DNA of 64,000 nucleotides, from positions 1-64,000 of IMG/VR virus record IMGVR_UViG_3300042691_034899; one strand, written 5' to 3'. The notes under the pieces were generated by a model, which saw only the letters and a list, made by a program, of their open reading frames with translations, had not been told where the DNA came from and searched no databases. Numbering within the stretch: position 1 is the stretch's first letter; the number at the start of each line of letters is the position of its first letter. The position numbers were made by a program, and so were the translations under genes. This document shows positions 485-59,218 of the stretch, piece by piece. This stretch comes from a virus.

Positions 485-1636
485 TTACGTATTGTAAGAT
501 GCTAATAGTGCTCCCATATCTGTAACTGAAATTATTGCTGTTCCCGTTGTGTTATCCACTGGTACTCCCACTGCCACTGATGATGCTGATGGAACTTTTA
601 ATGTTCCTGTTAATGCACCACTTGCGTAAGTTGTGCCATCTCTAACATCTGTTACTGCTGGGTTTCCAAGTGCTGTTCCAGCAGAGTATAGGGTTTTATT
701 GGTTGCAACTACATCTGTTTGAAAAGTTATTTGTGTAGGCAATGAATTACTAAGTCTTGTTCTTGTACATGAAATTGGATAACATTCATTGACACAAATT
801 ATTTGACCGCTAATAGTCAATAATCCAGTAGATGATATTGCTAGAACTCTTGCATTATTTGATTGAGTTATACCATTTACTGTTATAGTTGACCCAACGC
901 CTCCAGCTATTGCAACACCTGATGTAGATGCTGGAGCAGAACTAACAGTTCCTGTAACATTTAGTATTCCACCAGTTGCAACACCAAATCCTTGTGTACT
1001 TTCTGACCCCTTTATATTCCCAGTTATATTTACTGTTGATGTTATAGCGCCTCCATTATTACTTATATATCCCCATGAATCAGTTCTAACAAAAGTCATA
1101 TTTCCTACCCAATTTAAAGTTGCAGATACAGCAGTAATATTAATACCATTTTGAGTAGTAATAGCACTAACATGACCACCACTGCCGTTTAGATTGAATA
1201 TACCATTGGCAGTAATGGCAACTACAGTATTATTAATTGCCCAATTTGAATTTAACGTTAGCGTTCCTGTTCCTGATAATCTAACAACAGCATTTAAGGT
1301 GTTAGGGTTACCTCCAGAACCAGATATATTTGTTGAAGTAACTGTTGCTGAATTTGGAGAAGCTAATGTAAAATCTATAAGCGTTGTTGTGCCTGAGTTA
1401 TTTACAAGTCCTGTACCCGTTGCATTTACACTTACTCCATTTGTAAGTACAAAAATTCCTCCAGCAACAGCTGGCGCTCCAGCCGTATTTCTTAAACTTA
1501 ATACTGTAACATTTTGGTCTACTGTTACAGTAAAATTATTTGCATAAACATCATCTGCTGAAGTAGGTAATGTTCCTCCATTCCATGTAGCTGTACTGCT
1601 CCAGTTACCGTTTGCTACGGCATATCTTAGTGCCAT
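485..1636 (-). CDS. Beta-rich virion or adhesin-like protein
   Basis: 383 residues, rich in Thr, Ser, Asn and Gly with almost no charge, as in beta-helical or beta-sandwich phage surface proteins. The N-terminus (about residues 8-50: NGNWSSTATWNGG, then a P-x-x-x-D-D-V segment and V-T-V-D-Q-N-V) resembles the start of G8-like repeats in Bacteroidota adhesins. The rest reads as short beta repeats. Position next to the holin at the end of the virion operon suggests a tail fibre or receptor-binding component. The start overlaps the upstream stop by one base. Function is inferred from composition and context. Confidence 0.5.
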   Translation of the reverse strand: MALRYAVANGNWSSTATWNGGTLPTSADDVYANNFTVTVDQNVTVLSLRNTAGAPAVAGGIFVLTNGVSVNATGTGLVNNSGTTTLIDFTLASPNSATVTSTNISGSGGNPNTLNAVVRLSGTGTLTLNSNWAINNTVVAITANGIFNLNGSGGHVSAITTQNGINITAVSATLNWVGNMTFVRTDSWGYISNNGGAITSTVNITGNIKGSESTQGFGVATGGILNVTGTVSSAPASTSGVAIAGGVGSTITVNGITQSNNARVLAISSTGLLTISGQIICVNECYPISCTRTRLSNSLPTQITFQTDVVATNKTLYSAGTALGNPAVTDVRDGTTYASGALTGTLKVPSASSVAVGVPVDNTTGTAIISVTDMGALLASYNT

Positions 1637-1830
1637 TACTGATTGATTTCATTTGATGATTCAACAAATAACTTAGCCTCGTCAAAACACTCTTGAAGTG
1701 TAAGTCCTGTCTTTACATCTGATTTAATAGTAACTTGGTTGCCTTCATTGTCAACATACCATGACCTCATTACTAAGGCATTCATTCCGCCTCCCGTTGA
1801 GTTTTGAACTATTGAATATTGTGTCTCCAT
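1636..1830 (-). CDS. Small hypothetical protein in virion operon
   Basis: 64 residues, not recognised. It is slightly acidic with no membrane segment. It sits between the adhesin-like gene (one-base stop/start overlap) and another small virion-region gene two bases upstream, so it is almost certainly co-translated with them. It could be an accessory or chaperone of the neighbouring fibre protein, but nothing in the sequence shows that. Confidence 0.5.
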   Translation of the reverse strand: METQYSIVQNSTGGGMNALVMRSWYVDNEGNQVTIKSDVKTGLTLQECFDEAKLFVESSNEINQ

Positions 1831-1832
1831 AA

Positions 1833-2120
1833 TTATACGTAAGTTAATGAATATCTATTTGTCCATGCACCTGTTGCTTGTAATGTTATTGGTGAGCCAG
1901 GAGTTGTAAAGTCAACTCTTTTTATTGTCCAAGTTCCTGAATCCAATGTGCCTACTGGTGCTGTTCCTGAGTATTGATAAGGATAAACATAATCACTTCT
2001 TCTTTCGTAGTTGGTTCCGCCTCCACCTCCTCCAGTAGTTTTAACCTTTCCATCTGAGCCGATAATAACTATGGAGGAGTTTCCATAGCTATTACCGTTA
2101 GTATCTATTTTAGATATCAT
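1833..2120 (-). CDS. Small virion-region protein with Gly run
   Basis: 95 residues, not recognised. A run of six glycines at about residues 31-36 separates a short N-terminus from a Tyr/Thr-rich beta-type C-terminal half, like a linker in a fibre or decoration protein. Its C-terminal GAWTNRYSLTY segment is similar in style to the GAWTNSEITFSF segment of the gene at 5438-5803, hinting at a shared beta fold. It overlaps the upstream gene by four bases. Confidence 0.5.
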   Translation of the reverse strand: MISKIDTNGNSYGNSSIVIIGSDGKVKTTGGGGGGTNYERRSDYVYPYQYSGTAPVGTLDSGTWTIKRVDFTTPGSPITLQATGAWTNRYSLTYV

Positions 2121-2413
2121 ATCTCAGTTAGTTCAATTAAGAAAGTTGTATTTGGTGTAGTTGTTTCTACTACTAGTTTGTCTTTTTGGTTTATTGTATA
2201 TGGAGTATTATCAAATACTGTATCTCCTGGATCTAGATTTAGTTTTATTATAGATACTTCAGTGTTATCACTGGCATCATATTTTTTTAATTCTAGATCA
2301 TATGCGGCCAAGTTTGTAAACTTTATAAAGTTAACAACGTGGTTTTTCTTAATACTAGATTCAAATAATACATTTGATCCTACAGCTAATGTACCTTGCT
2401 TAGTATAATTCAT
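2117..2413 (-). CDS. Small virion-region protein
   Basis: 98 residues, not recognised. The pattern is alternating hydrophobic and polar residues with conserved-looking turns (LDPGDT, TPYTINQKDKL), consistent with a small beta-barrel structural or decoration protein. It overlaps the next gene by four bases (ATGA-type coupling). The assignment to the virion is from operon position only. Confidence 0.5.
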   Translation of the reverse strand: MNYTKQGTLAVGSNVLFESSIKKNHVVNFIKFTNLAAYDLELKKYDASDNTEVSIIKLNLDPGDTVFDNTPYTINQKDKLVVETTTPNTTFLIELTEI

Positions 2414-2434: not shown

Positions 2435-4180
2435 TTAGGCTCCTCCTTCACAGCTTGTACAATCTCCATAAGTTATTCCTGAAGCTACTGGTACAAATGG
2501 TAATGGAGAAAAATTAGGAGGGTATCCATATCCTATAACTTCTAAACAACCATTGACTGAATCGTATACCTCTCCTATTCCAAGACTGCCTCCTTGTGCA
2601 ACAATTAAAGTGGTAGTAGCTGTTCCACAATATTGAACTTCATATACTTGACAAGTAATAAATAGAAGTTTTCCTCTACATTCTCGACAACTTAGAAATA
2701 TTCCAGGGCCTCTACCTTGACCTATAAAATCAAAAAATAAATAAGTAGCTACTCCTGTAGTGTCATAAGACATTACTTCCCAACAAACCCCCCAGTTATC
2801 TTTTAATATACTTCCTTCAGGGTATTGCATAAATTGAGCAGGTACGCTTACTACTTCTACTCTATCATTATCACAACAGTTTCTTACAGTTAAGAAATAC
2901 TCTTCAGGACAAGGATTATCTGTTGTACAATTCAAGCAATTATTTTCACTTCCTGTATATACACTATCTACTATTATATCATAGTTAGTTGGTAGTGTAA
3001 TTGCTTCTCCGATTACTTTCCAACAAATACCATTAGTATCTACAAATACATCATTTATATTTAATGGAATTGTTGTAGCAATTGTTTCAAATAACTGACC
3101 ACAACATGATTGAACTTTCCAAAAATCAGGACATGGATTTGCTGTAATACAATCGTCACAATTTCCAGTAATTAAAGTATCTACAGTAATAGATTCTTCA
3201 GATATTGGTGCACTTGATTCATCTACTACACTCCAGCATAATCCATTGTTATCCACAAAGGTATCTCCTACAACTAACCCAGGTAAAGATCCAGAAACAA
3301 ATTCAACACCTGCAATACAACAAGATGATATAGTAAGATTTAACGGACACTCATTTGCCGCTTGACATTCTACACAAGAATCATAAGTATCTACAAAGTT
3401 TCTAGTAAAGTTTGTTACATCATTTGATGCAGATATTACTTCCCAACAGTTACCTTCATCATCTACATGGAAACTACCTACTTGTAATCCAGGTATGTTA
3501 ACTAGTTCTGTAATGATAGGTTCACAACAGTTTTTAATAATAAAGTTAGATTCTGATGTTTTTACAGAACAAGGTCTTTCTATGTCTAATGTATAAGATA
3601 CTGTTACTAAGTTTGTTTCAAGTGGAGGAACCTCACATTCTCCTGGACAGGAAACATCTACAATAAATCCTACAAGAAGTCTTGTCTCATGTATGTCAAA
3701 GTTAGATCCTAAAGTAACACTTGTTTCAAAACATACTTGACCTTTTTCATCAACTAAGAATGATTCTACTGGTATAAATGTAAAAGCTGGAGTTAAACTA
3801 CTTTGATTATATGTACAATCAAAATGAAATACACCTATTTTAAATGTTATTATAAAACCTCCAGCTATATAATCATCTGCATTATTAAAAAATGCTGTAC
3901 CAGAAAATGTAATTATATCATCTGGAATTAAATTAATAGGAATTGGTACACCAGCTGTTTTATCTTGTATCTTAACTTCTGGAGCTAATGAAGAATTTAG
4001 ATAATCATAAGCAAATCTTGACCATGTAGCTTGCCCGTCTGGACCATTATTACCACCATAATAAAGAACAGGATCAGGTGTTCCTACATTTATAGATGGT
4101 GACATAAAAAATGAATGTGCCGCTATCTTAGTAAACTCTGGTTTACATTCATTAGGATTTATAAAAATTTGTGTGCTCAT
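2435..4180 (-). CDS. Cysteine-rich tandem-repeat virion protein
   Basis: 581 residues. From about residue 215 to the end it has five tandem units of about 70 residues. Each has the skeleton [N/S]-C-C, then about 25 residues, D-x-x-G-x-C-W-x-V, then about 30 residues, C-x-x-C. The fifth unit is degenerate (Y-C-G and G-C-L-E-V). The N-terminal 200 residues are beta-rich with few cysteines. The gene sits among virion genes, so a baseplate, fibre or surface protein is likely. The paired cysteines could bind metal or form disulfides in the extracellular particle. No known family was recognised. Confidence 0.6.
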   Translation of the reverse strand: MSTQIFINPNECKPEFTKIAAHSFFMSPSINVGTPDPVLYYGGNNGPDGQATWSRFAYDYLNSSLAPEVKIQDKTAGVPIPINLIPDDIITFSGTAFFNNADDYIAGGFIITFKIGVFHFDCTYNQSSLTPAFTFIPVESFLVDEKGQVCFETSVTLGSNFDIHETRLLVGFIVDVSCPGECEVPPLETNLVTVSYTLDIERPCSVKTSESNFIIKNCCEPIITELVNIPGLQVGSFHVDDEGNCWEVISASNDVTNFTRNFVDTYDSCVECQAANECPLNLTISSCCIAGVEFVSGSLPGLVVGDTFVDNNGLCWSVVDESSAPISEESITVDTLITGNCDDCITANPCPDFWKVQSCCGQLFETIATTIPLNINDVFVDTNGICWKVIGEAITLPTNYDIIVDSVYTGSENNCLNCTTDNPCPEEYFLTVRNCCDNDRVEVVSVPAQFMQYPEGSILKDNWGVCWEVMSYDTTGVATYLFFDFIGQGRGPGIFLSCRECRGKLLFITCQVYEVQYCGTATTTLIVAQGGSLGIGEVYDSVNGCLEVIGYGYPPNFSPLPFVPVASGITYGDCTSCEGGA

Positions 4181-4190
4181 AATGTTTTAT

Positions 4191-5438
4191 TTATCTACTT
4201 ATTTCTTCCCAATCTATTGAAGCATATGCTCCTAATGTTCCTCCTGTAGCATCAATAGCCATTTCAATAACTATTTCAAAAGCTGTACCTGTAAAAATAT
4301 TTCTTTCTAATTGAGCTGCAAACAAAGCTTCTTTTAGTATGTCCATACTTGGAGAACCTTGATTAGATGAGTTTATATATCCTTGTGCTAATACTCTACC
4401 GCCTGTGGTTGATGTACCTGTAAGATTATATTCAACAGAAGAATCAGCTGCAGCAGGAGCCCAAGCTCCACCAGTTATTGCAGTTCCATTTAAAATTCTC
4501 CAGGCATAATTTTTACCATTACCTAATCCTAACAATGAAACAGCAGTAAGAATAACAACAGCATCTAATCTAGTAGATCTTAATCTAATACCTACAATAG
4601 GATAAAATGTTCCTGCTGCAGGAAATGTTACTGGAGTAAGTATTGGTGTACCAATAGCTTGTTGTGCTCCTCTTAACTCATATCCTCCTTCAGATATTAC
4701 AGTAGAACAAACTTGCTTTAATGTAGCTGCAGTTGCTGTTCCTTCATTAGTTATTTCACATCTTAATGGTAATGAAGCAGTAGTAATATAGGTAGATGCA
4801 ATTAAGTTAGCATGATTAAATCTATGACAAAGTATAAAGTTTCCATCTATTACAAATCCTAATCTTACAGTTCCTTCACCTAACCACTCAATATCCATAA
4901 ATAGAATCTGAGCTTTGGTTATATCTAAAGTTACCCCAGATGGCCCATTTCCGTCTAGTGTATCTACATTCCAAACAGCTTGAGGTACAATACTTTCAGT
5001 TATCGCACCTGTAACTGAACTTCTTTCTACAAAACTTAAAATATTATCTCTTAACTGAATGTAGATACCATTATCTGTTCCATAGTACCCAACTCTTTGT
5101 CTTAATCCTGTTTGAGCAGGAGCCATTACAAATGTATTAAACACTAGTAAAGACTTACCTGGTTGATAAGAGAATACTTTTGCAGTCTCTCTTACTATTT
5201 GAGATCCACCTGTACTAGTTACATTTAGATTTACTAATCCTTCATTTGAACTAAATACAGCTGTTGCACCACTTGTAGCAAGTGTATTCCATAAACCATT
5301 ATCTCTATATCTATGAGAAGAATCAAATAGAGTTAAAGGTTGTGATACTCTTAGTCTTCCAAAGGCATCAGCCAACATAGGAAGATTTGTAAGAATATTA
5401 GAATTAGAATTTCCTGATGTTGATATTACTGTGCTCAT
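4191..5438 (-). CDS. Phage virion structural protein (FGRLRVS type)
   Basis: 415 residues. Residues about 25-46 contain A-F-G-R-L-R-V-S-x-P-x-T-L-F-D-S, the hallmark opening of a structural protein found in many marine and Bacteroidota phages. The rest is beta-rich with Thr/Gly/Ser bias and ends in an I-D-W-E-E motif. It is probably part of the tail or a fibre-associated component. The neighbours on both sides are virion-type genes, and its start codon shares a base with the stop of the upstream gene at 5438. Confidence 0.6.
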   Translation of the reverse strand: MSTVISTSGNSNSNILTNLPMLADAFGRLRVSQPLTLFDSSHRYRDNGLWNTLATSGATAVFSSNEGLVNLNVTSTGGSQIVRETAKVFSYQPGKSLLVFNTFVMAPAQTGLRQRVGYYGTDNGIYIQLRDNILSFVERSSVTGAITESIVPQAVWNVDTLDGNGPSGVTLDITKAQILFMDIEWLGEGTVRLGFVIDGNFILCHRFNHANLIASTYITTASLPLRCEITNEGTATAATLKQVCSTVISEGGYELRGAQQAIGTPILTPVTFPAAGTFYPIVGIRLRSTRLDAVVILTAVSLLGLGNGKNYAWRILNGTAITGGAWAPAAADSSVEYNLTGTSTTGGRVLAQGYINSSNQGSPSMDILKEALFAAQLERNIFTGTAFEIVIEMAIDATGGTLGAYASIDWEEISR

Positions 5439-5803
5439 TATGCAGTTATCCAGCTAATTAGTAATTCTGTTCCTGCGCCGCTTGCGGTTATTGAATTTTC
5501 TGCAAAATAATTATTCATTGCACTTGCGTCATAATTAACTATTTCACCTGGTTTAATTGTTGTGCCTAACACAGTTCCGTTTCCAGTACCTACATTAGCT
5601 ACAGAAAAACTAAATGTGATTTCTGAATTAGTCCAAGCACCTGTTACTCTTTCAGCATTAGGTATTCTTGCTTGAGGAGATAGTAGAGTAGTAAATGTAG
5701 CTTCTAAATTTGTTACTGAATCTGTAATACAGCACAGTTTATTTTTTAATTCTTGAAGTCGAATTCTTATAACAGAATCTGTACCTCTTCCTGGTCCTGA
5801 CAT
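5438..5803 (-). CDS. Small virion-region protein
   Basis: 121 residues, not recognised. A short helical N-terminus (residues 10-40) precedes a beta-rich C-terminus with GAWTNSEITFSF and a Gly-rich tail. It lies just after the terminator at 5831-5867 and just before the FGRLRVS protein. It may be an attachment or adaptor domain for the fibre genes that follow. Confidence 0.5.
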   Translation of the reverse strand: MSGPGRGTDSVIRIRLQELKNKLCCITDSVTNLEATFTTLLSPQARIPNAERVTGAWTNSEITFSFSVANVGTGNGTVLGTTIKPGEIVNYDASAMNNYFAENSITASGAGTELLISWITA

Positions 5804-25518: not shown

Positions 25519-27108
25519 ATGTCAAAACAAATTATTTTTAACAAGGAAGCAAGAGAAAAGCTTTTATCAGGTGCTGATAAATTAGCTGATGCCGTAAGAG
25601 TTACCCTTGGAGCTAAGGGTAGAAATGTTATGATTGGAGAAGGCATGCACTCAGCGTTTGTTACTAATGATGGTGTAACAGTTGCTAGAGCTGTAGAACT
25701 TGATGATCCAATTGAAAATATTGGTGCGTATTTCTTAAAAGAAGCTGCATCAAAAACAGAGGAAATGGCAGGAGATGGTACAACTACTTGTACAATACTA
25801 ACTCATTCGATGCTTAAATTAGGGATGAAGTATCTAGCCGCCGATGCAAATCCGATGGATTTAAAAAGAGGAATGCACAAAACGCTAGAAAAACTTGTGT
25901 CAATGATTGATAAAGATTCTAAGAAGATCAGTATTAATAGTGATGAGTTACGACATGTAGCCACAATATCTGCTAACAATGATCCATTTATTGGAGACTT
26001 AATTGCAGAAGCTATTCATAGAGTAGGTAAATCTGGTATTGTATCTGTTGAGCAATCAACAAATATGGAAACTAGAATTGAAGTTGTTGAGGGTACTGAA
26101 TTTGACAAGGGTTACATTCACCCCTACTTTATGACAAATGTAGAGAAGGAAAGAGCCGAGTTAGATAATGTATATGTCTTAGTTACTGATCACAAGATTT
26201 TTAGTATGCGTGAACTTCTTCCTATACTAGAAAAAGTTGGAAGAAGCAAACCCCTATTGATTATCTCTGACGAGATTGACTCTAATGTTGTTCCAACTAT
26301 TATCTTGAATCACACACAGGGTATTGTAAATGTATGCTGTGTAAAAGCTCCAGGATTTGGAGACACAAGAGTAAGTATGCTTGAAGACATTGCAGCTATT
26401 ACAGGTGCAGAACTTATCTCATCAAGTAAGAGTATGAAACTTGAGGATGTTACATTAGAAATGCTTGGGTATGCTACTAAGGTTAACGTATCAAAAGATA
26501 GAACTACAATCATTGATGGCAACGGAGATGCAGATATTATTGAAGCAAGAATCAAACAAATAGAAAGCCTTATTCAAACTGAGGACGATGCATATGCAAA
26601 AGATAAACTTCAAGAAAGATTGGGTAGACTAACTGGAGGAGCTGCAGTCTTATTTGTTGGAGGGACAACAGAGACAGAAATGGAAGAGAAGAAGTATAGA
26701 GTAGATGATGCTTTATCTGCTACTAAAGCTGCTCTTGAAGAGGGTATTGTTCCAGGTGGTGGAGTAGAACTTGCTGTAGTTGGTCACAAATTCAATAAGG
26801 AAGCCTCAGACATCTTTTTAAATGACGATGAAAGACTTGGTGCAGAAATAGTTTTAAAGTCTCTTAGAGAGCCTCTATATCAAATTCTTAAGAATGCTGG
26901 AATCAGTGGAGATAAAATCTATACTGATATCTGCGAAAGTGAAAGTGGAAAGATGGGTTATGATCTAAATAAGGATCAGTATGTTGACATGCTAGAAGCA
27001 GGTATTGTAGATCCAGCAAAAGTAACTAAAGCTGCATTGATGAATTCAACATCAATTGCATCAATGATATTAACAACAGAAGCTATAATCGCTAAAAAAC
27101 CAGAATAG
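25519..27108 (+). CDS. groEL: Chaperonin GroEL (Hsp60)
   Basis: 529 residues, close to full length. V-T-L-G-A-K-G-R-N-V and T-N-D-G-V-T-V-A in the N-terminal equatorial part, the ATPase motif G-D-G-T-T-T at 85-90, and G-I-V-P-G-G-G-V-E-L near 405-414 are intact. The C-terminus ends I-I-A-K-K-P-E and lacks the Gly-Gly-Met repeat tail of bacterial GroEL. It folds proteins inside a double ring with GroES, whose gene follows directly. The probable use is folding of capsid or other phage proteins. Confidence 0.96.
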   Translation: MSKQIIFNKEAREKLLSGADKLADAVRVTLGAKGRNVMIGEGMHSAFVTNDGVTVARAVELDDPIENIGAYFLKEAASKTEEMAGDGTTTCTILTHSMLKLGMKYLAADANPMDLKRGMHKTLEKLVSMIDKDSKKISINSDELRHVATISANNDPFIGDLIAEAIHRVGKSGIVSVEQSTNMETRIEVVEGTEFDKGYIHPYFMTNVEKERAELDNVYVLVTDHKIFSMRELLPILEKVGRSKPLLIISDEIDSNVVPTIILNHTQGIVNVCCVKAPGFGDTRVSMLEDIAAITGAELISSSKSMKLEDVTLEMLGYATKVNVSKDRTTIIDGNGDADIIEARIKQIESLIQTEDDAYAKDKLQERLGRLTGGAAVLFVGGTTETEMEEKKYRVDDALSATKAALEEGIVPGGGVELAVVGHKFNKEASDIFLNDDERLGAEIVLKSLREPLYQILKNAGISGDKIYTDICESESGKMGYDLNKDQYVDMLEAGIVDPAKVTKAALMNSTSIASMILTTEAIIAKKPE

Positions 27109-28979: not shown

Positions 28980-29366
28980 CATAGAAGAGACTCTAGACCT
29001 AGATTTCTCCCCTATTGGAATTGGATAACCACCCTCATCTATATGTACAAATTTAATATGTGTTTTTAGAACCACAACTTGTTTACCTGTATATACATTA
29101 TGAGCTCTTGCCTCCATGTATAAATTTATAGAAGAGTTACCTATTGATTGTGGATAACCGTATATTTTAATTAGCTGTCCTTCACGAGCTGGCTTTTCAA
29201 AATTACATTTATCAATTGATACTGTAACCATTCTAGGTGTATCACAAAGCTGCATTGCATAACCTGCTGCTGAAGCATCAATCCATGCTAAAAGTTTTCC
29301 ACCGAATAGGTTACCATGAAAACCTAAATCGGATTTTTTAATTGGGTGTGAGTTTAATAATTCCAT
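28968..29366 (-). CDS. Acyl-CoA thioesterase, hotdog fold (YciA-like)
   Basis: 132 residues. G-F-H-G-N-L-F-G-G-K-L-L-A-W-I-D-A-S-A near residues 15-33 is the hotdog active-site helix of the YciA/BFIT acyl-CoA thioesterases (N-x-x-G-x-x-x-G-G, D). It is followed by V-T-V-S-I-D-K-C-N-F-E-K-P and G-Y-P-Q-S-I-G-N-S-S. It hydrolyses acyl-CoA to free acid and CoA. Start ATG overlaps the thyA stop (TAATG), so it is coupled to dTMP synthesis. A lipid-metabolism enzyme is unusual in a phage. Confidence 0.8.
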   Translation of the reverse strand: MELLNSHPIKKSDLGFHGNLFGGKLLAWIDASAAGYAMQLCDTPRMVTVSIDKCNFEKPAREGQLIKIYGYPQSIGNSSINLYMEARAHNVYTGKQVVVLKTHIKFVHIDEGGYPIPIGEKSRSRVSSMLSN

Positions 29367-30400
29367 TAATTTGATAAAGGTGCTTTAATATGTGGATGTG
29401 ATTTATAATCTTCAATCAGAAAATCTTGTACCTCAATATATTCTATTTGTCCTAGTATGTCTGAATCGGGATTCCAGAATTCATCATTAATAGTTAATGA
29501 ACATAATGAATAAGGTTCCCTACTGATTTGTTCTTTAGCTTGATCTACGTGGTTTAAGTATAAATGTGTATCACCTAAATTACCAATTAATTCATCAGGA
29601 ACCATGTTAACTTCTTTTGCAATTATTTCAAGAAGCAGCCCATATGACGCTATATTAAATGGCAAACCAAGAAATGTATCTACCGAACGTTGATTCCACA
29701 TTAGAGAAATAGCTCTGTATTTTCCTGGATTAGTAATCTTTTCCTCTCTAGTTGTTGGTCTTGTATAAAATTGAAAATCAGTATGACATGGTGGAAGTGT
29801 CATTTGGCCCAATTCACCAACATTCCAAGCCGAAACTTTATTACGTCTAGAATCTGGATCTGTTTTAAGTAAGTGGATTGAGTTTGCGATTTGATCATAC
29901 TTTGGGACTTTTTTAAAATCGGTCTCCATTCCATGATTCCATCCAGTAGGTACTTTATGGAACCCTCCCCAACTTCTCCATTGAGCTCCATAAATAGGAC
30001 CTAATTCACCCCACTTCTTAGCAAACTCTTCATCAAGCTTTATCGCTTTTTCGAAGTCTTCTTTTGACAACTTTGGTATTGTACTAAATGGTGAAGTTTC
30101 ATTTGCTTTATCATTCCATTCACAATACTTCTTATATGCATCCCCCATCCAGATGTTACAATCATTCTCAATAAGGTACTTAATGTTTGTATCTCCACGT
30201 AAGAACCAAAGAAGCTCTGCTACTACACCTTTCCAATAAACTTTTTTTGTAGTTAAGATTGGGAACCCTTCTGACATCTTGTGTCTAATCTGTCTTCCAA
30301 ATACTGATAAGGTTCCAGTACCAGTTCGGTCTTCTTTCCTAATACCATTATCTAGGATATCCTGTAAAAGTTCTTGGTACTGTTTATCTAGATTGTTCAT
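29366..30400 (-). CDS. thyA: Thymidylate synthase
   Basis: 344 residues versus about 264 in E. coli ThyA; extra material lies at about residues 85-125 and 145-165. R-T-G-T-G is at 25-29, the catalytic Cys is C205 in L-P-P-C-H-T-D-F, and N-Q-R-S-V-D-x-F-L-G-L-P-F-N is intact. It methylates dUMP to dTMP with methylene-tetrahydrofolate. With NrdAB and Gmk it makes the phage largely independent in dNTP supply. Confidence 0.97.
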   Translation of the reverse strand: MNNLDKQYQELLQDILDNGIRKEDRTGTGTLSVFGRQIRHKMSEGFPILTTKKVYWKGVVAELLWFLRGDTNIKYLIENDCNIWMGDAYKKYCEWNDKANETSPFSTIPKLSKEDFEKAIKLDEEFAKKWGELGPIYGAQWRSWGGFHKVPTGWNHGMETDFKKVPKYDQIANSIHLLKTDPDSRRNKVSAWNVGELGQMTLPPCHTDFQFYTRPTTREEKITNPGKYRAISLMWNQRSVDTFLGLPFNIASYGLLLEIIAKEVNMVPDELIGNLGDTHLYLNHVDQAKEQISREPYSLCSLTINDEFWNPDSDILGQIEYIEVQDFLIEDYKSHPHIKAPLSN

Positions 30401-31651: not shown

Positions 31652-32719
31652 TTATTTTCTAAATTTTTTCATTGTGCCATCTTCAAAGATCTTAATGTAC
31701 ACACCTTCTCCAAGTTCACCATGCACTTCTCTTCCAAGCATGTCTACAATCTTTATAACTTTTTTAACTTCAATTCTTGTATTATTTATAACAACAACTC
31801 CTATGATATCCATCGCTCCATCAAAGTCCCACTGTTTCAATCTGTAGTAATTAAGTTTCCCCTGTTCGAAATTGTGATCATTAAACAAGTACTCAGAAAC
31901 TTCATTAGAGAACCCAACACTTTTCACATCTCCAATATATCTCCACTGATCTCCATCAGTACTAGTCTCAATACTAAAGTAATCACTGTTATGTTCAGTA
32001 GCAGTACTCCACAAAAGTACATTTACTCCATCCTTGTTAAGTCCGCTATACTCCATCATCTCTACTGGAAGCGAAGGATCAGCAGTCTCAATAAGTTCGA
32101 TGTTATCAATCCACCACTCTTCACCAGTTGAATTGGCCCTTACAAATATTCTACCTGCAAGCTGAGTTATTCCAGGAGTGAATACAAGAGTGATTGTAGA
32201 ATACCCATCACCAGTAGTTGTTCTGTTACCACCACCAGCTGGGGTATAAGTATTAAGCGAACTATTTCGAACCTTGATTACTGATCCAGCAGGGTTGTAA
32301 TTCCAATATGCATTACTAAAACCTGTCACTCTGATTTCATTTGTATAACTAGTTCCTCCATTTGTACTAACTGATAGCTCCATGTAATCAGTACCATCAA
32401 CTCCAGCAGTAGCAACAGTCGGCCCAGAGAACCTATAAGATCCTAACCTAAATCTAAGTGCATACTCAGATGAAGCAGTAAGCCCAGTCACATTTGGTAA
32501 AACATAAATATTAGATTCCACACTAGAGGATCCATTACCAGCTCCATAAATAGCAGCACTTAAATCTGGAGATACAGATACATTCATAAAGTACCCAGTA
32601 GTAGGAGAGTTCATAGCCCAATAACATGGCCAACTAAATGTTTCTATGTTATCAAATAACACAGTAGTCTGCCCCATAACAGAGAGGGGCATAAGTAGAG
32701 TTAGTAATAATTTTTTCAT
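31652..32719 (-). CDS. Secreted protein with T9SS-type C-terminal domain
   Basis: 355 residues. Residues 1-17 form a Sec signal ending V-M-G-Q. About 20-210 is a beta-sandwich of jelly-roll type (W-W-I-D-N-I-E-L ending). About 218-305 is the Bacteroidota module L-P-V-E-M-M-E, W-S-T-A-T-E-H-N-S-D-Y-F, Y-Y-R-L-K-Q-W-D-F-D-G. About 310-355 has V-K-I-V-D-M-L-G-R-E-V and G-V-Y-I-K-I-F-E-D-G-T, ending K-K-F-R-K, the pattern of a type A sorting domain for the type IX secretion system. The product is expected on the host surface or outside the cell. It sits in the phage operon between phage genes. Confidence 0.75.
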   Translation of the reverse strand: MKKLLLTLLMPLSVMGQTTVLFDNIETFSWPCYWAMNSPTTGYFMNVSVSPDLSAAIYGAGNGSSSVESNIYVLPNVTGLTASSEYALRFRLGSYRFSGPTVATAGVDGTDYMELSVSTNGGTSYTNEIRVTGFSNAYWNYNPAGSVIKVRNSSLNTYTPAGGGNRTTTGDGYSTITLVFTPGITQLAGRIFVRANSTGEEWWIDNIELIETADPSLPVEMMEYSGLNKDGVNVLLWSTATEHNSDYFSIETSTDGDQWRYIGDVKSVGFSNEVSEYLFNDHNFEQGKLNYYRLKQWDFDGAMDIIGVVVINNTRIEVKKVIKIVDMLGREVHGELGEGVYIKIFEDGTMKKFRK

Positions 32720-36576: not shown

Positions 36577-37020
36577 ATGCCGAATATTTCAGAGGTAGAA
36601 ATTACCTACAAGACAAAAGTAAAAGCTTCCGAAAGAGAGAAGGTAGCTACATCGCAAAGGGCATTCGATGTTCTTCGCCCATTCTTTGAAGACGTAATAG
36701 AGTATAGGGAAAAGTTTTGTGTACTATTACTTAACCGTCAGAATCAAGTACTAGGTGTACACACAATTTCCGTTGGTGGTACGTCTTCAACTGTTGCAGA
36801 TTCAAAGATCATCTTTCAGGGTATATTGTTGGCTAATGCTTCTGCTATTATTCTTGCTCACAATCATCCATCGGGATGCCTTAGACCTTCTGACAATGAT
36901 AAGTCACTGACTAAAAAAATTGTTGATGGTTGCAAGTTATTTGACATTAGTTGTTTGGATCATTTAATCATTACGGATGAAAGTTTTTATTCTTTTGCCG
37001 ATCAAGGTTTAATGCAATGA
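36577..37020 (+). CDS. radC: RadC-family JAB/MPN protein
   Basis: 147 residues, equal to the JAB domain without the N-terminal HhH part of cellular RadC. The metal motif H-N-H-P-S-G is at 95-100, followed by P-S-x-x-D. S-V-G-G-T and H-L-I-I-T-D are also typical. The biochemical role is unsettled; such proteins are common on mobile elements and in phages. It overlaps the next gene by ATGA. Confidence 0.93.
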   Translation: MPNISEVEITYKTKVKASEREKVATSQRAFDVLRPFFEDVIEYREKFCVLLLNRQNQVLGVHTISVGGTSSTVADSKIIFQGILLANASAIILAHNHPSGCLRPSDNDKSLTKKIVDGCKLFDISCLDHLIITDESFYSFADQGLMQ

Positions 37021-56592: not shown

Positions 56593-57570
56593 ATGGGGAT
56601 TTTTGATAAGAGAGTTAGTTACAAACCTTTCGAGTATTCTCACATAACAGATCCGTTGATCGATGCTATGTGGGCGAGTCATTGGACTCACAATGAATTT
56701 AATTTTAAGAACGATGTTCAGGACTTTAAGACAAGGCTTACTGATCAAGAAAGAGGAGTAGTAAAGAGAGCTATTCTTTTGACTTCTCAAGTAGAGGTAG
56801 CTGTAAAATCTTATTGGTCTAACATTGGAAGAGTTCTTCCAAAGCCTGAGATATCTGACTTAGGTGCAGTGTTCGGTGGTGTTGAAGTGATTCATTCAAG
56901 AGCCTATGCAGAGATTTTGTCTAAGCTAGGATTAGAAAATGAATTTGATACACTATTCTCAGAGCCAGTTGTAAAAGGTAGAGTGGATTATCTTTCTAAG
57001 TATGTGAATAAAATCTACAAAGATGACAAGAAGAATATAGTATATTCATTAATCTTATTCACATTATTTACGGAGTACTGCGCTTTATTCTCTCAGTTCT
57101 ACACCATACTTGGGTTCAATAGATTTAGAGGTATACTAAAAGATGTATCTAACATTGTACAGTATACTTCAAAAGAAGAGAATCTACATGCTGAAGGTGG
57201 TATGGCATTGATTAATCAAATACGTGAAGAGCATCCAGAAGTATTTGATGAAGAGCTTACTAGTAAAATTTACTCAGAAGTTCAAGAAGCGTTCACGGCT
57301 GAGTCTAATCTTATTGATTGGATTTTGCAAGGGTACGAAAATGAATTCCTATCTCAAGATATACTAGAGGGGTATATTAAAAGAAGGATGAATGAATGCC
57401 TATCAAAAATAGGTTTTGAAAAACAATTTGAAATTCCTTCCAATATTATTGAGGAAACTAATTGGATGGAGGAAGAGGTATATGCTTCAGCTATGACAGA
57501 TTTCTTTCATAAGAAGCCTATAGACTATGCGAAAAAAACAAAAGTATTTAACGAAGAAGAATTATTTTAA
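56593..57570 (+). CDS. nrdB: Ribonucleotide reductase beta subunit, class I
   Basis: 325 residues. Likely metal ligands: E68 (usually Asp), E98 and H101 in V-E-V-I-H-S-R-A-Y, E161, E196 and H199 in E-E-N-L-H. The radical Tyr position is kept at Y105. It makes the tyrosyl radical used by NrdA to reduce ribonucleotides. nrdA follows after one base. Confidence 0.95.
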   Translation: MGIFDKRVSYKPFEYSHITDPLIDAMWASHWTHNEFNFKNDVQDFKTRLTDQERGVVKRAILLTSQVEVAVKSYWSNIGRVLPKPEISDLGAVFGGVEVIHSRAYAEILSKLGLENEFDTLFSEPVVKGRVDYLSKYVNKIYKDDKKNIVYSLILFTLFTEYCALFSQFYTILGFNRFRGILKDVSNIVQYTSKEENLHAEGGMALINQIREEHPEVFDEELTSKIYSEVQEAFTAESNLIDWILQGYENEFLSQDILEGYIKRRMNECLSKIGFEKQFEIPSNIIEETNWMEEEVYASAMTDFFHKKPIDYAKKTKVFNEEELF

Positions 57571-57571
57571 A

Positions 57572-59218
57572 ATGGAAAACTTTTATTGGCTTAACGAAGA
57601 ATCAAGAAAATTTTTAAATGAAGGCTATCTTTTACCTGGTGTTACTCCAGAAGATAGAATCAGACAAATAGCTGATACAGCTGAACGAATAATGGGTATT
57701 AACGGATTCTCAGATAAGTTCTACGGATATATGGCAAAGGGCTTTTACTCTTTAGCTACTCCAGTATGGATGAACTTTGGACTAGACAGAGGCCTACCTA
57801 TATCGTGTTATGGGATTGACATTCAAGATGACACAGCGGATATTGTAAGAGCTGCTGCTGAGATTGGAATGCTTACAAAACATGGTGGGGGTACTGCTGG
57901 ATTCTTTGGCAAACTTCGTCACAGAGGAGCTCTAATTAAAAGCAATGGGGTATCTAATGGTCCTATATCTTTTATGGAGTTGTTCCAATCAGCTACGAAT
58001 GTTATCACACAAGGTCAAGCAAGGAGAGGTTACTTTGCTGCTTACCTAAACATTGATCATCCAGACATTGAGGAGTTCCTGAAGTGTAGAGAAGAAGGTC
58101 ACCCAATCCAAGACATAGCATTAGCTGTAACTATCCCAGACTATTGGATGCAAGAGATGATTGATGGAGATAAAGGCAAGAGAGCTATAATGGCAAAGGT
58201 ACACAAGAAGAGATCTGAAACTGGATTCCCTTACATATTCTTTTCTGATAATGTAGATAAAGATAAGCCTCAAGTGTATAAGGATAAAGACTTAAAGATT
58301 AATCACAGTCAAATGTGTTCTGAGATAATCGAGTACACTGATGATGAAAAAACATTTGTTTGTTGTTTATCCTCTTTGAACTTAGTTCATTGGGATGAGA
58401 TTAAAGAGACAGATGCAATTGAAACTCTAACTATATTCCTTGATGCTGTATATACAGAGTTTATTGAAAAGGCAGAAGGTATACCATTCTTTGAGAAGGC
58501 CGTAAAATTTGCAAAGGAACATAGAAGTATTGGTCTTGGTGTTTTAGGATGGCATAGTTTCTTGCAATCTAAAATGATTCCTTTTGAAGGTATGGAAGCT
58601 ATGTATCTCAATGCGGAAATCTTCAAGACTATTAATGAAAGAAGCTTAGAGACAAGTAAAAAACTAGCCATATTTTATGGAGAGCCTGAGATGCTTAAAG
58701 GATACGATGAGAGATTCACAACAAGAGTTGCTATTGCTCCTACTACTTCATCAAGTTTTATCTTAGGTCAGGTGTCTCCATCAATTGAGCCGTTGCATTC
58801 TAATTACTTTTTGAAAGACTTAGCTAAAGGTAAATTCTCGTATAAGAATCCTTACTTAGAAGAGCTACTTAAAAACAAAGGACTAGATACTCCAGAAACT
58901 TGGAAAAGTATTATGGTTAAGGGTGGATCTGTTCAGCACCTAGAGGGTCTGACAAAAGAAGAGAAGGATGTATTCAAAACATTCGGAGAGATAAGTCAGA
59001 TGGAAATTGTAAAACAAGCAGCTCAAAGACAGAAATGGATAGATCAGGCTCAGTCATTGAATCTTATGATTCATCCAGACGTTCCGTTAAAGGATGTTAA
59101 TGCTTTGCTTATTGAAGCTTGGAAGCTTGGACTTAAAACACTATATTACCAAAGGAGTGTAAATATTGCACAACAAGTATCAAGAGATATTTTGTCTTGT
59201 GCATCTTGCGAGGCGTAA
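57572..59218 (+). CDS. nrdA: Ribonucleotide reductase alpha subunit, class I (short)
   Basis: 548 residues from ATG 57572, about 200 fewer than E. coli NrdA; no N-terminal ATP-cone, so probably no dATP feedback. Cysteines: C79 (S-C-Y-G), C249 in S-Q-M-C-S-E-I, C264/C265 in C-C-L-S-S-L-N, and a C-terminal C-A-S-C pair. Where most enzymes have Asn two residues before the radical Cys, this one has Gln247. P-T-T-S-S-S shows the phosphate site. Confidence 0.95.
   Translation: MENFYWLNEESRKFLNEGYLLPGVTPEDRIRQIADTAERIMGINGFSDKFYGYMAKGFYSLATPVWMNFGLDRGLPISCYGIDIQDDTADIVRAAAEIGMLTKHGGGTAGFFGKLRHRGALIKSNGVSNGPISFMELFQSATNVITQGQARRGYFAAYLNIDHPDIEEFLKCREEGHPIQDIALAVTIPDYWMQEMIDGDKGKRAIMAKVHKKRSETGFPYIFFSDNVDKDKPQVYKDKDLKINHSQMCSEIIEYTDDEKTFVCCLSSLNLVHWDEIKETDAIETLTIFLDAVYTEFIEKAEGIPFFEKAVKFAKEHRSIGLGVLGWHSFLQSKMIPFEGMEAMYLNAEIFKTINERSLETSKKLAIFYGEPEMLKGYDERFTTRVAIAPTTSSSFILGQVSPSIEPLHSNYFLKDLAKGKFSYKNPYLEELLKNKGLDTPETWKSIMVKGGSVQHLEGLTKEEKDVFKTFGEISQMEIVKQAAQRQKWIDQAQSLNLMIHPDVPLKDVNALLIEAWKLGLKTLYYQRSVNIAQQVSRDILSCASCEA

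What the first reader, a model, noticed from the sequence alone, without database searches (positions are those of the whole stretch)
2435..4180. Five tandem cysteine repeats in a virion protein
Units of about 70 residues with C-C, D-x-x-G-x-C-W-x-V and C-x-x-C repeat five times, the last degraded. No known family came to mind. Disulfide or metal cross-linking of an extracellular fibre is plausible and repeat number may vary between strains.
Basis: partly seen in the sequence, partly recalled or inferred. Interest (0 to 1): 0.56.

Follow-up and report, generated by a model that had tools for sequence, protein, structure and literature searches.

The report
Cysteine-locked hypervariable phage fibre tip
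A phage surface protein carries a row of small, cysteine-pinned domains whose skeleton hardly changes while their outer surface changes unusually fast, which is what one expects of the part of a virus that grips its bacterial host.

Summary
The repeats are real. Window 2435-4180 (minus strand) encodes 581 aa: a TNF/C1q-like beta domain, then five cysteine units (period 69-83 aa). Units 1-4 far exceed shuffles; unit 5 is degraded. Each unit folds, by prediction (pLDDT 90.7), into five strands plus a helix bearing CxxC. I found no Pfam, NCBIfam or PDB match. About forty distinct relatives exist, all in uncultured phage contigs. The array is C-terminal, has 4-6 units, and in several relatives sits on a 36-136-repeat collagen-like stalk. 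Four cysteines per unit are invariant (179 of 179). The other two are present or absent together (150 both, 28 neither, one counting artefact), so they probably form a disulfide. Unit order is fixed (185 of 187 nearest neighbours have the same index). The gene family shows strong diversifying selection. Time-matched orthologues differ at 25% of residues against 5% for neighbouring genes; variation is on the exposed face and helix, never at cysteines. The signal is strongest in two sister clades and weaker in the window's own clade. The gene sits in a cassette shared by phages with very different capsids. Best explanation: the host-recognition tip of a virion fibre. Virion location, receptor and cysteine chemistry are inferred.

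The parts
2435..4180 (-). Cys-repeat fibre protein, 581 aa (whole gene)
   Evidence: relatives
3569..4147 (-). N-terminal beta domain, residues 12-204, TNF/C1q-like jelly roll by prediction; 6 Cys (12,122,150,178,182,204) invariant in 5 full-length close relatives
   Evidence: best Z 7.2, a level the tool calls common
3347..3568 (-). Unit 1, residues 205-278, 6 Cys; 70% mean identity among 5 relatives
3131..3346 (-). Unit 2, residues 279-350, 6 Cys; 74% mean identity
2909..3130 (-). Unit 3, residues 351-424, 6 Cys; the unit modelled alone (pLDDT 90.7)
2651..2908 (-). Unit 4, residues 425-510, 6 Cys; dN/dS about 1.1 against L011
2438..2650 (-). Unit 5, residues 511-581, degraded, 4 Cys (both members of the optional pair missing); 26% mean identity
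4191..5438 (-). 415-aa virion structural protein (phrog_1645), adjacent cassette gene
5438..5803 (-). 121-aa conserved cassette gene; homologue upstream of the Cys gene in 22 of 29 relatives with upstream DNA

Best explanation
The protein is a virion fibre or adhesin whose C-terminal array of five cysteine-locked beta domains is the distal, host-contacting part. SHOWN by sequence: a repeat family with four invariant cysteines per unit plus an optional pair that comes and goes together; fixed unit order; C-terminal position, on long collagen-like stalks in some relatives; a cassette position shared by phages with very different capsid genes; and amino-acid change far faster than in neighbouring genes at the same synonymous distance, placed on the exposed strand face and the helix and avoiding cysteines and core. 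PREDICTED: one compact five-strand plus helix fold per unit, behind a trimer-type beta domain. INFERRED: three chains trimerise through the beta domain (or collagen stalk), the units project outward like beads, and cysteines (disulfides, or a four-Cys metal site plus one disulfide) hold each bead rigid so that its surface can be rewritten. Units 1-2 would be the proximal structural part and units 4-6 the variable tip. The host is probably a bacterium of the Bacteroidota, judged only from relatedness to Cellulophaga phages.
For: Repeat and fold. Cys pattern over 41 ORFs: 187 units aligned, 179 countable, b/d/e/f present 179 of 179, c and g both present 150, both absent 28, one exception that is a miscount. 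Architecture: 41 distinct ORFs, array within 9 residues of the C end in 37 of 41 (some of these cut by contig ends), 10 ORFs with 36-136 GxxGxxGxxG hits; collagen confirmed by Pfam in L051, the only stalked one scanned whole (E 3e-232). Diversification: 71 Cys-gene pairs median dN/dS 1.13 (46 of 71 dN>dS) versus 571 other pairs 0.20 (26 of 571); time-matched at 4-fold difference 0.02-0.12: 24.8% aa difference (51 pairs) versus 5.2% (28 pairs); codon positions 1 and 2 change more than 3; exposed/buried alternation and helix peak. Mobility: 415-aa neighbour 72-87% identical in L002, L003, L009 records where found MCP, portal and TerL are 24-31%. Recent exchange: Cys gene dS 0.15 versus holin dS 1.28 for window/L011.
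Against: The diversifying signal is strong in two sister clades (ratio of aa to 4-fold difference 3.8-3.9, neighbours 0.6-0.7) but only modest in the window's own clade (0.99 versus 0.54, 5 pairs) and the collagen clade (0.86 versus 0.57, 15 pairs). Pairs are not independent. In the clade of short proteins the gene just upstream shows the same signal, so the target may be the cassette. The window protein has no collagen stalk and no identified attachment site. The beta-domain match is at a level (Z about 7) that the tool calls common. No sequence or structure match ties a unit to a known binding domain. No virion proteomics.
Confidence: 0.65

Rival explanations
1. Purely structural: cysteine cross-links stiffen or join fibres on the virion, and the array does not bind the host. 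Rapid change would then reflect relaxed constraint.
For: 34 Cys in 581 aa; paired loss of c and g; all components of the phage Milano tail are described as disulfide-crosslinked (PMC10811340, abstract and outline read).
Against: Relaxed constraint gives dN/dS up to about 1, not pairs with dN well above dS (46 of 71), nor strict buried/exposed alternation and zero change at the core cysteines.
Confidence: 0.15
2. A head (capsid) decoration or head fibre rather than a tail fibre; it may still touch the host or polysaccharide.
For: It is encoded just after MCP, ring-type and structural genes; the adjacent 415-aa family is filed under 'head and packaging' in PHROGs.
Against: Relatives with long collagen stalks and the host-range-like evolution suggest a tail appendage, but nothing excludes a head fibre.
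Confidence: 0.25
3. The four invariant cysteines bind a metal (zinc) and only the optional pair is a disulfide.
For: All four are kept in 179 of 179 countable units and in remote single units, whereas the optional pair is lost together; CxxC lies at the start of a helix in the model; phage proteins fold in the reducing cytoplasm (general knowledge).
Confidence: 0.4
4. The high dN/dS is an artefact: codon bias, an overlapping gene, recombination or an A-targeting diversity-generating retroelement.
For: Third-position C/G is rarer in the Cys gene (7% versus 13%).
Against: 4-fold-site composition is the same as in controls (saturation 0.52 versus 0.55); alternative frames hold about as many stops as codon-shuffled copies in the 18 genes looked at; share of changes involving A equals controls (about 0.7); no reverse transcriptase in the window's record or in 13 of 13 other IMG/VR records searched, many of them fragments.
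Confidence: 0.1

Closest known systems
Collagen-like phage tail fibres with C-terminal C1q/TNF-like heads
   Same: Relatives L016, L017, L050-L063 have Gly-x-y stalks; a beta domain follows, and the variable part is C-terminal.
   Different: The terminal part is an array of 4-6 cysteine units not found in Pfam, NCBIfam or PDB; the window protein itself has no Gly-x-y stretch.
phrog_2209 (91 aa, unknown function)
   Same: 25-residue match around the '..VDDEGNCWEV' motif, E 1e-4 for the whole protein.
   Different: Only 25 of 91 positions; 1 of 26 single units matches at E 0.017; a search with the family finds only L002 and the window record among 8.
Phage Milano disulfide-locked tail (PMC10811340)
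   Same: Use of cysteines in extracellular tail parts.
   Different: There disulfides lock sheath and other tail components; here they appear to lie within small repeated domains. Only the abstract and outline were read.
phage csAssE-Sib and Cellulophaga phages phi17:2/phi4:1 (Lightbulbvirus)
   Same: Nearest named relatives by MCP (34-37%), portal, TerL and gene order.
   Different: No Cys units (0 of the 2 genomes searched); at the equivalent place csAssE-Sib has another 71-aa repeat with two Cys per unit that does not align (probability 0.1).

Membership tests
Collagen-like tail fibre | Gly-x-y triple-helix stretch in the protein | tested here: not met
   0 GxxGxxGxxG in the window protein; 36-136 in 10 relatives
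TNF/C1q-like jelly-roll (N-terminal domain) | Jelly-roll fold matching solved members clearly | tested here: inconclusive
   Z up to 7.2 (phage baseplate 9f4b) and 7.0 (FasL 4msv), model pLDDT 69; below the tool's own trust level
Any Pfam/NCBIfam domain for the Cys unit | Match at a curated cut-off | tested here: not met
   0 families for the protein; only chance-level matches for 26 units
phrog_2209 | Match over most of the profile | tested here: not met
   25 of 91 positions
Solved fold for the Cys unit | Structural match in PDB | tested here: inconclusive
   Foldseek best E 2.1; VIA best Z 4.1 (PriA), 154 chains compared
DGR-diversified tail protein | Reverse transcriptase nearby and A-specific variation | tested here: not met
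   No RVT_1 in the 80.8-kb record; A share equals controls
Receptor-binding protein | Binds host surface | not testable with these tools
   Only evolutionary and architectural evidence
Receptor-binding protein | Faster amino-acid change than other genes | tested here: met
   modest in the window's own clade

The most novel reading that the evidence does not exclude
A previously undescribed class of hypervariable binding scaffold in phages. It is a small five-strand plus helix domain pinned by four obligatory cysteines (perhaps a metal site) and one optional disulfide, used as an ordered array of 4-6 position-specific beads at the tip of collagen-stalked or short fibres. It is exchanged as a cassette between unrelated phage backbones and diversified by selection without any dedicated mutagenesis system.
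Probability: 0.4. Interest if true: 0.75.

Novelty: new variant of a known kind. Interest (0 to 1): 0.57.

Why it matters
Receptor-binding parts of most uncultured phages cannot be recognised by homology. A cysteine signature with invariant core and a fast-changing surface gives a way to find them, to predict which residues face the host, and offers a compact natural scaffold that tolerates heavy surface change. It also shows an adhesin cassette moving between phages whose capsid and packaging genes share under a third of their residues.

Tried and rejected
Closer homologues in named phages: none by tblastn for the window protein, for two distant relatives, or for the four-unit-type protein of G021; none in plasmids; none in 84,980 prokaryote genomes with two pattern sets (0 of 107 and 0 of 76 candidate stretches). 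PDB by sequence gave only chance hits. Fold search of one unit: PDB best Z 4.1 and not convincing; BFVD gave matches with probability 1.00 but E 1e-3 or worse. The one with a readable record, Sulfitobacter phage phiCB2047-B M4PYH5 (identified as SUFG_00037 by its 189-aa length only), lacks the Cys pattern, so at most the fold is shared. csAssE-Sib's repeat protein as a homologue: rejected. Overlapping gene, codon bias and DGR as causes of low dS: rejected. A T9SS sorting domain in window 31652-32719 was suspected by eye; Pfam and NCBIfam do not support it.

Literature: ten searches. The seven that looked for such a protein by its cysteine or collagen terms gave no paper whose title or abstract start described it. 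The library holds open-licence papers only. Only PMC10811340 was opened (abstract and outline).

Caveats on counts: orthologue pairs share ancestry and are not independent. The identity filter was 62-92% or at least 60%. ORFs overlapping the Cys gene were removed but not in 101; one search shows 15 of 17 such pairs with dN/dS above 0.7. L004 was left out as first member of a pair. Eight of 187 aligned units were dropped (CxxC not mapped, or cut by a contig end). The alignment for the unit model held 58 of 66 rows printed (eight near-duplicate or weak rows left out by hand); A3 held 26 units. One search's spectrum used at most 25 pairs per group. The printed list was cut; its medians were computed in the script on all pairs.

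Full report
OBSERVATION. The minus-strand ORF 2435-4180 encodes 581 aa with 34 cysteines. Five units carry CC, DxxGxCWxV and CxxC, with CC-to-CC spacing of 69, 72, 76 and 83 residues. A profile of four units finds the held-out fifth well above shuffles for U1-U4 (21-38 bits against a maximum of 12); U5 alone is marginal (9.5 bits, 1 of 1964 shuffles reaches it). Orthologues make U5 credible: it aligns with unit 5 of relatives.

ANATOMY. Residues 12-204 form a beta domain that resembles TNF/C1q-type jelly rolls and phage fibre heads (best Z 7.2; model pLDDT 69). That level is common by the tool's own note, so I treat it as a lead. It has six cysteines that are invariant among five full-length relatives. 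A single unit modelled with 58 unit sequences reaches pLDDT 90.7: strands 3-9, 15-20, 29-32, 37-43, 55-59 and helix 65-72, with CxxC in the first turns of the helix. Neither Foldseek nor VIA-align gave a convincing solved relative, and Pfam, NCBIfam and PDB sequence searches gave nothing above chance.

RELATIVES. Scans of IMG/VR gave 10, 15, 7, 20 and 36 confirmed loci, overlapping between scans. After removing contained sequences, 41 distinct ORFs remain, the window's own included. The array lies within 9 residues of the end of the ORF in 37 of 41 (some cut by contig ends); in L024, L025, L038 and L065, 61-135 residues follow. Unit number is 4 (ten short 315-aa proteins and others), 5 or 6. 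Ten ORFs have 36-136 collagen-like tetrads before the beta domain, up to 2298 aa long; the one tested is Pfam Collagen. L010 carries extra N-terminal modules. No relative was found in named phages, plasmids or prokaryote genomes.

CYSTEINES. In 187 aligned units, 179 could be scored. CC first, CW, and both of CxxC are Cys in all 179; a profile search favours such units, so this is partly built in. The second Cys of CC and the Cys of '..NPC' are both present in 150, both absent in 28, and discordant once. That case is a miscount in L065, where the next unit's first cysteine was counted. Such joint gain and loss is what a disulfide between these two would give. Remote units, one in a second protein of the same phage (record position 73703) and up to four in a 621-aa protein of the G021 record (two of them found by the profile), keep the four core positions as I read them.

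EVOLUTION OF THE ARRAY. In a tree of 187 units, 185 have as nearest neighbour a unit of the same index in another phage, none in the same protein (shuffled indices: mean 37, maximum 60). The units therefore diverged before these phages did and are not homogenised; number changes at the C-terminal end. Identity among five full-length relatives is 70% and 74% in units 1-2, 48% and 52% in units 3-4, 26% in unit 5, 48% in the beta domain.

SELECTION. Orthologous pairs of the Cys gene (71 pairs at 62-92% identity) have median dN 0.188, dS 0.167, ratio 1.13; 571 pairs of other genes in the same loci have 0.181, 0.848 and 0.20; dN exceeds dS in 46 of 71 against 26 of 571. At 4-fold sites the clade of short proteins differs at 7.0% (amino acids 26.5%), its neighbours at 30.3% (19.9%). 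The clade of L026-L066 gives 6.4% (24.4%) against 29.9% (22.1%). The window's clade gives 25.5% (27.2%) against 48.8% (26.8%), and the collagen clade 32.1% (28.3%) against 39.9% (24.4%). Matched for 4-fold difference 0.02-0.12, Cys proteins differ at 24.8% of residues (51 pairs) and other genes at 5.2% (28 pairs). Base composition at 4-fold sites is the same in both groups, alternative frames look random, and the substitution spectrum is not A-biased. Within units, change alternates along strands, peaks in the helix including the two x of CxxC (0.64, 0.56), and is zero at the four core Cys. In the window itself, against L011, units 3, 4 and 5 give dN/dS of about 0.25, 1.09 and 0.80, while the holin gives 0.11 with a dS eight times higher. 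So the Cys gene was probably exchanged recently. Pairs are not independent and I could not run a codon model.

CASSETTE. The gene follows a 121-aa gene (homologue upstream in 22 of 29 relatives with upstream DNA) and a 415-aa structural gene. The latter is 87, 83 and 72% identical in three relatives. Two of these records also hold MCP, portal and TerL, at only 24-31%; the third record (G001, 14.9 kb) showed none of the three. The 415-aa family is also about 60-64% identical in the best-matching cyanomyoviruses and in Puniceispirillum phage HMO-2011 (177 records with any match). Nearest named phages by capsid are csAssE-Sib and Cellulophaga phi17:2/phi4:1; csAssE-Sib and phi17:2 were searched and lack the Cys units.

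MECHANISM AND VERDICT. I read the protein as a fibre or adhesin whose cysteine-locked beads form a rigid, rewritable contact surface. Location on tail or head, receptor, and metal versus disulfide are open. It is a new variant of a known kind (phage host-recognition fibre) with an uncharacterised domain. The literature searches are listed under Tried and rejected; the library is open-licence only.

Noticed in passing
window 4191-5438 (-): 415-aa structural protein (phrog_1645) is about 60-64% identical across phages of unrelated hosts and morphotypes (T4-like cyanophages, HMO-2011, this Cellulophaga-phage relative) while capsid genes are barely alignable: an unusually mobile virion gene.
   Followed up: partly
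record G000 73703-73882 (-), outside the window (L069:13704-14399): A 232-aa protein ends in one remote Cys unit with only the four core cysteines (hhalign probability 83%).
   Followed up: partly
L070:5797-7659: A 621-aa protein of the 108.7-kb relative has up to four more remote Cys units of the type CYxLxxCxG..YTTTDLSAYVGQ..CW..C..C, suggesting a wider superfamily of such virion repeats.
   Followed up: partly
L012:21730-23472 (csAssE-Sib WOZ57256.1): At the equivalent gene position the gut relative carries six to seven 71-aa repeats with two Cys each and a CDFPDMT motif; not alignable with the units here.
   Followed up: partly
OR575929.1 46665-47183: csAssE-Sib has a reverse-transcriptase domain just after its structural and tail-fibre genes, possibly a diversity-generating retroelement.
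   Followed up: no
window 485-2413 (-): Four small genes between the Cys gene and the holin are missing in L011 and L005, where the holin follows directly; L011 keeps a start-codon remnant of gene 2117-2413.
   Followed up: partly
window 31652-32719 (-): Secreted-looking protein (signal-peptide-like start; C-terminal end looks by eye like a T9SS sorting domain, recalled), near nucleotide-metabolism genes; no Pfam or NCBIfam support.
   Followed up: partly
window 25519-27108 (+): The phage encodes a full-length GroEL (TIGR02348 above cut-off), plus thymidylate synthase (29366-30400) and a ribonucleotide reductase alpha subunit (57527-59218).
   Followed up: no
window 36577-37020 (+): Stand-alone RadC-like JAB domain protein (PF04002, E 3e-37).
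   Followed up: no
L016:733-1209, L018:1-327, L020:210-692: Another gene of about 160 aa upstream in the cassette also shows dN above dS between relatives (0.12-0.15 against 0.07-0.08).
   Followed up: no
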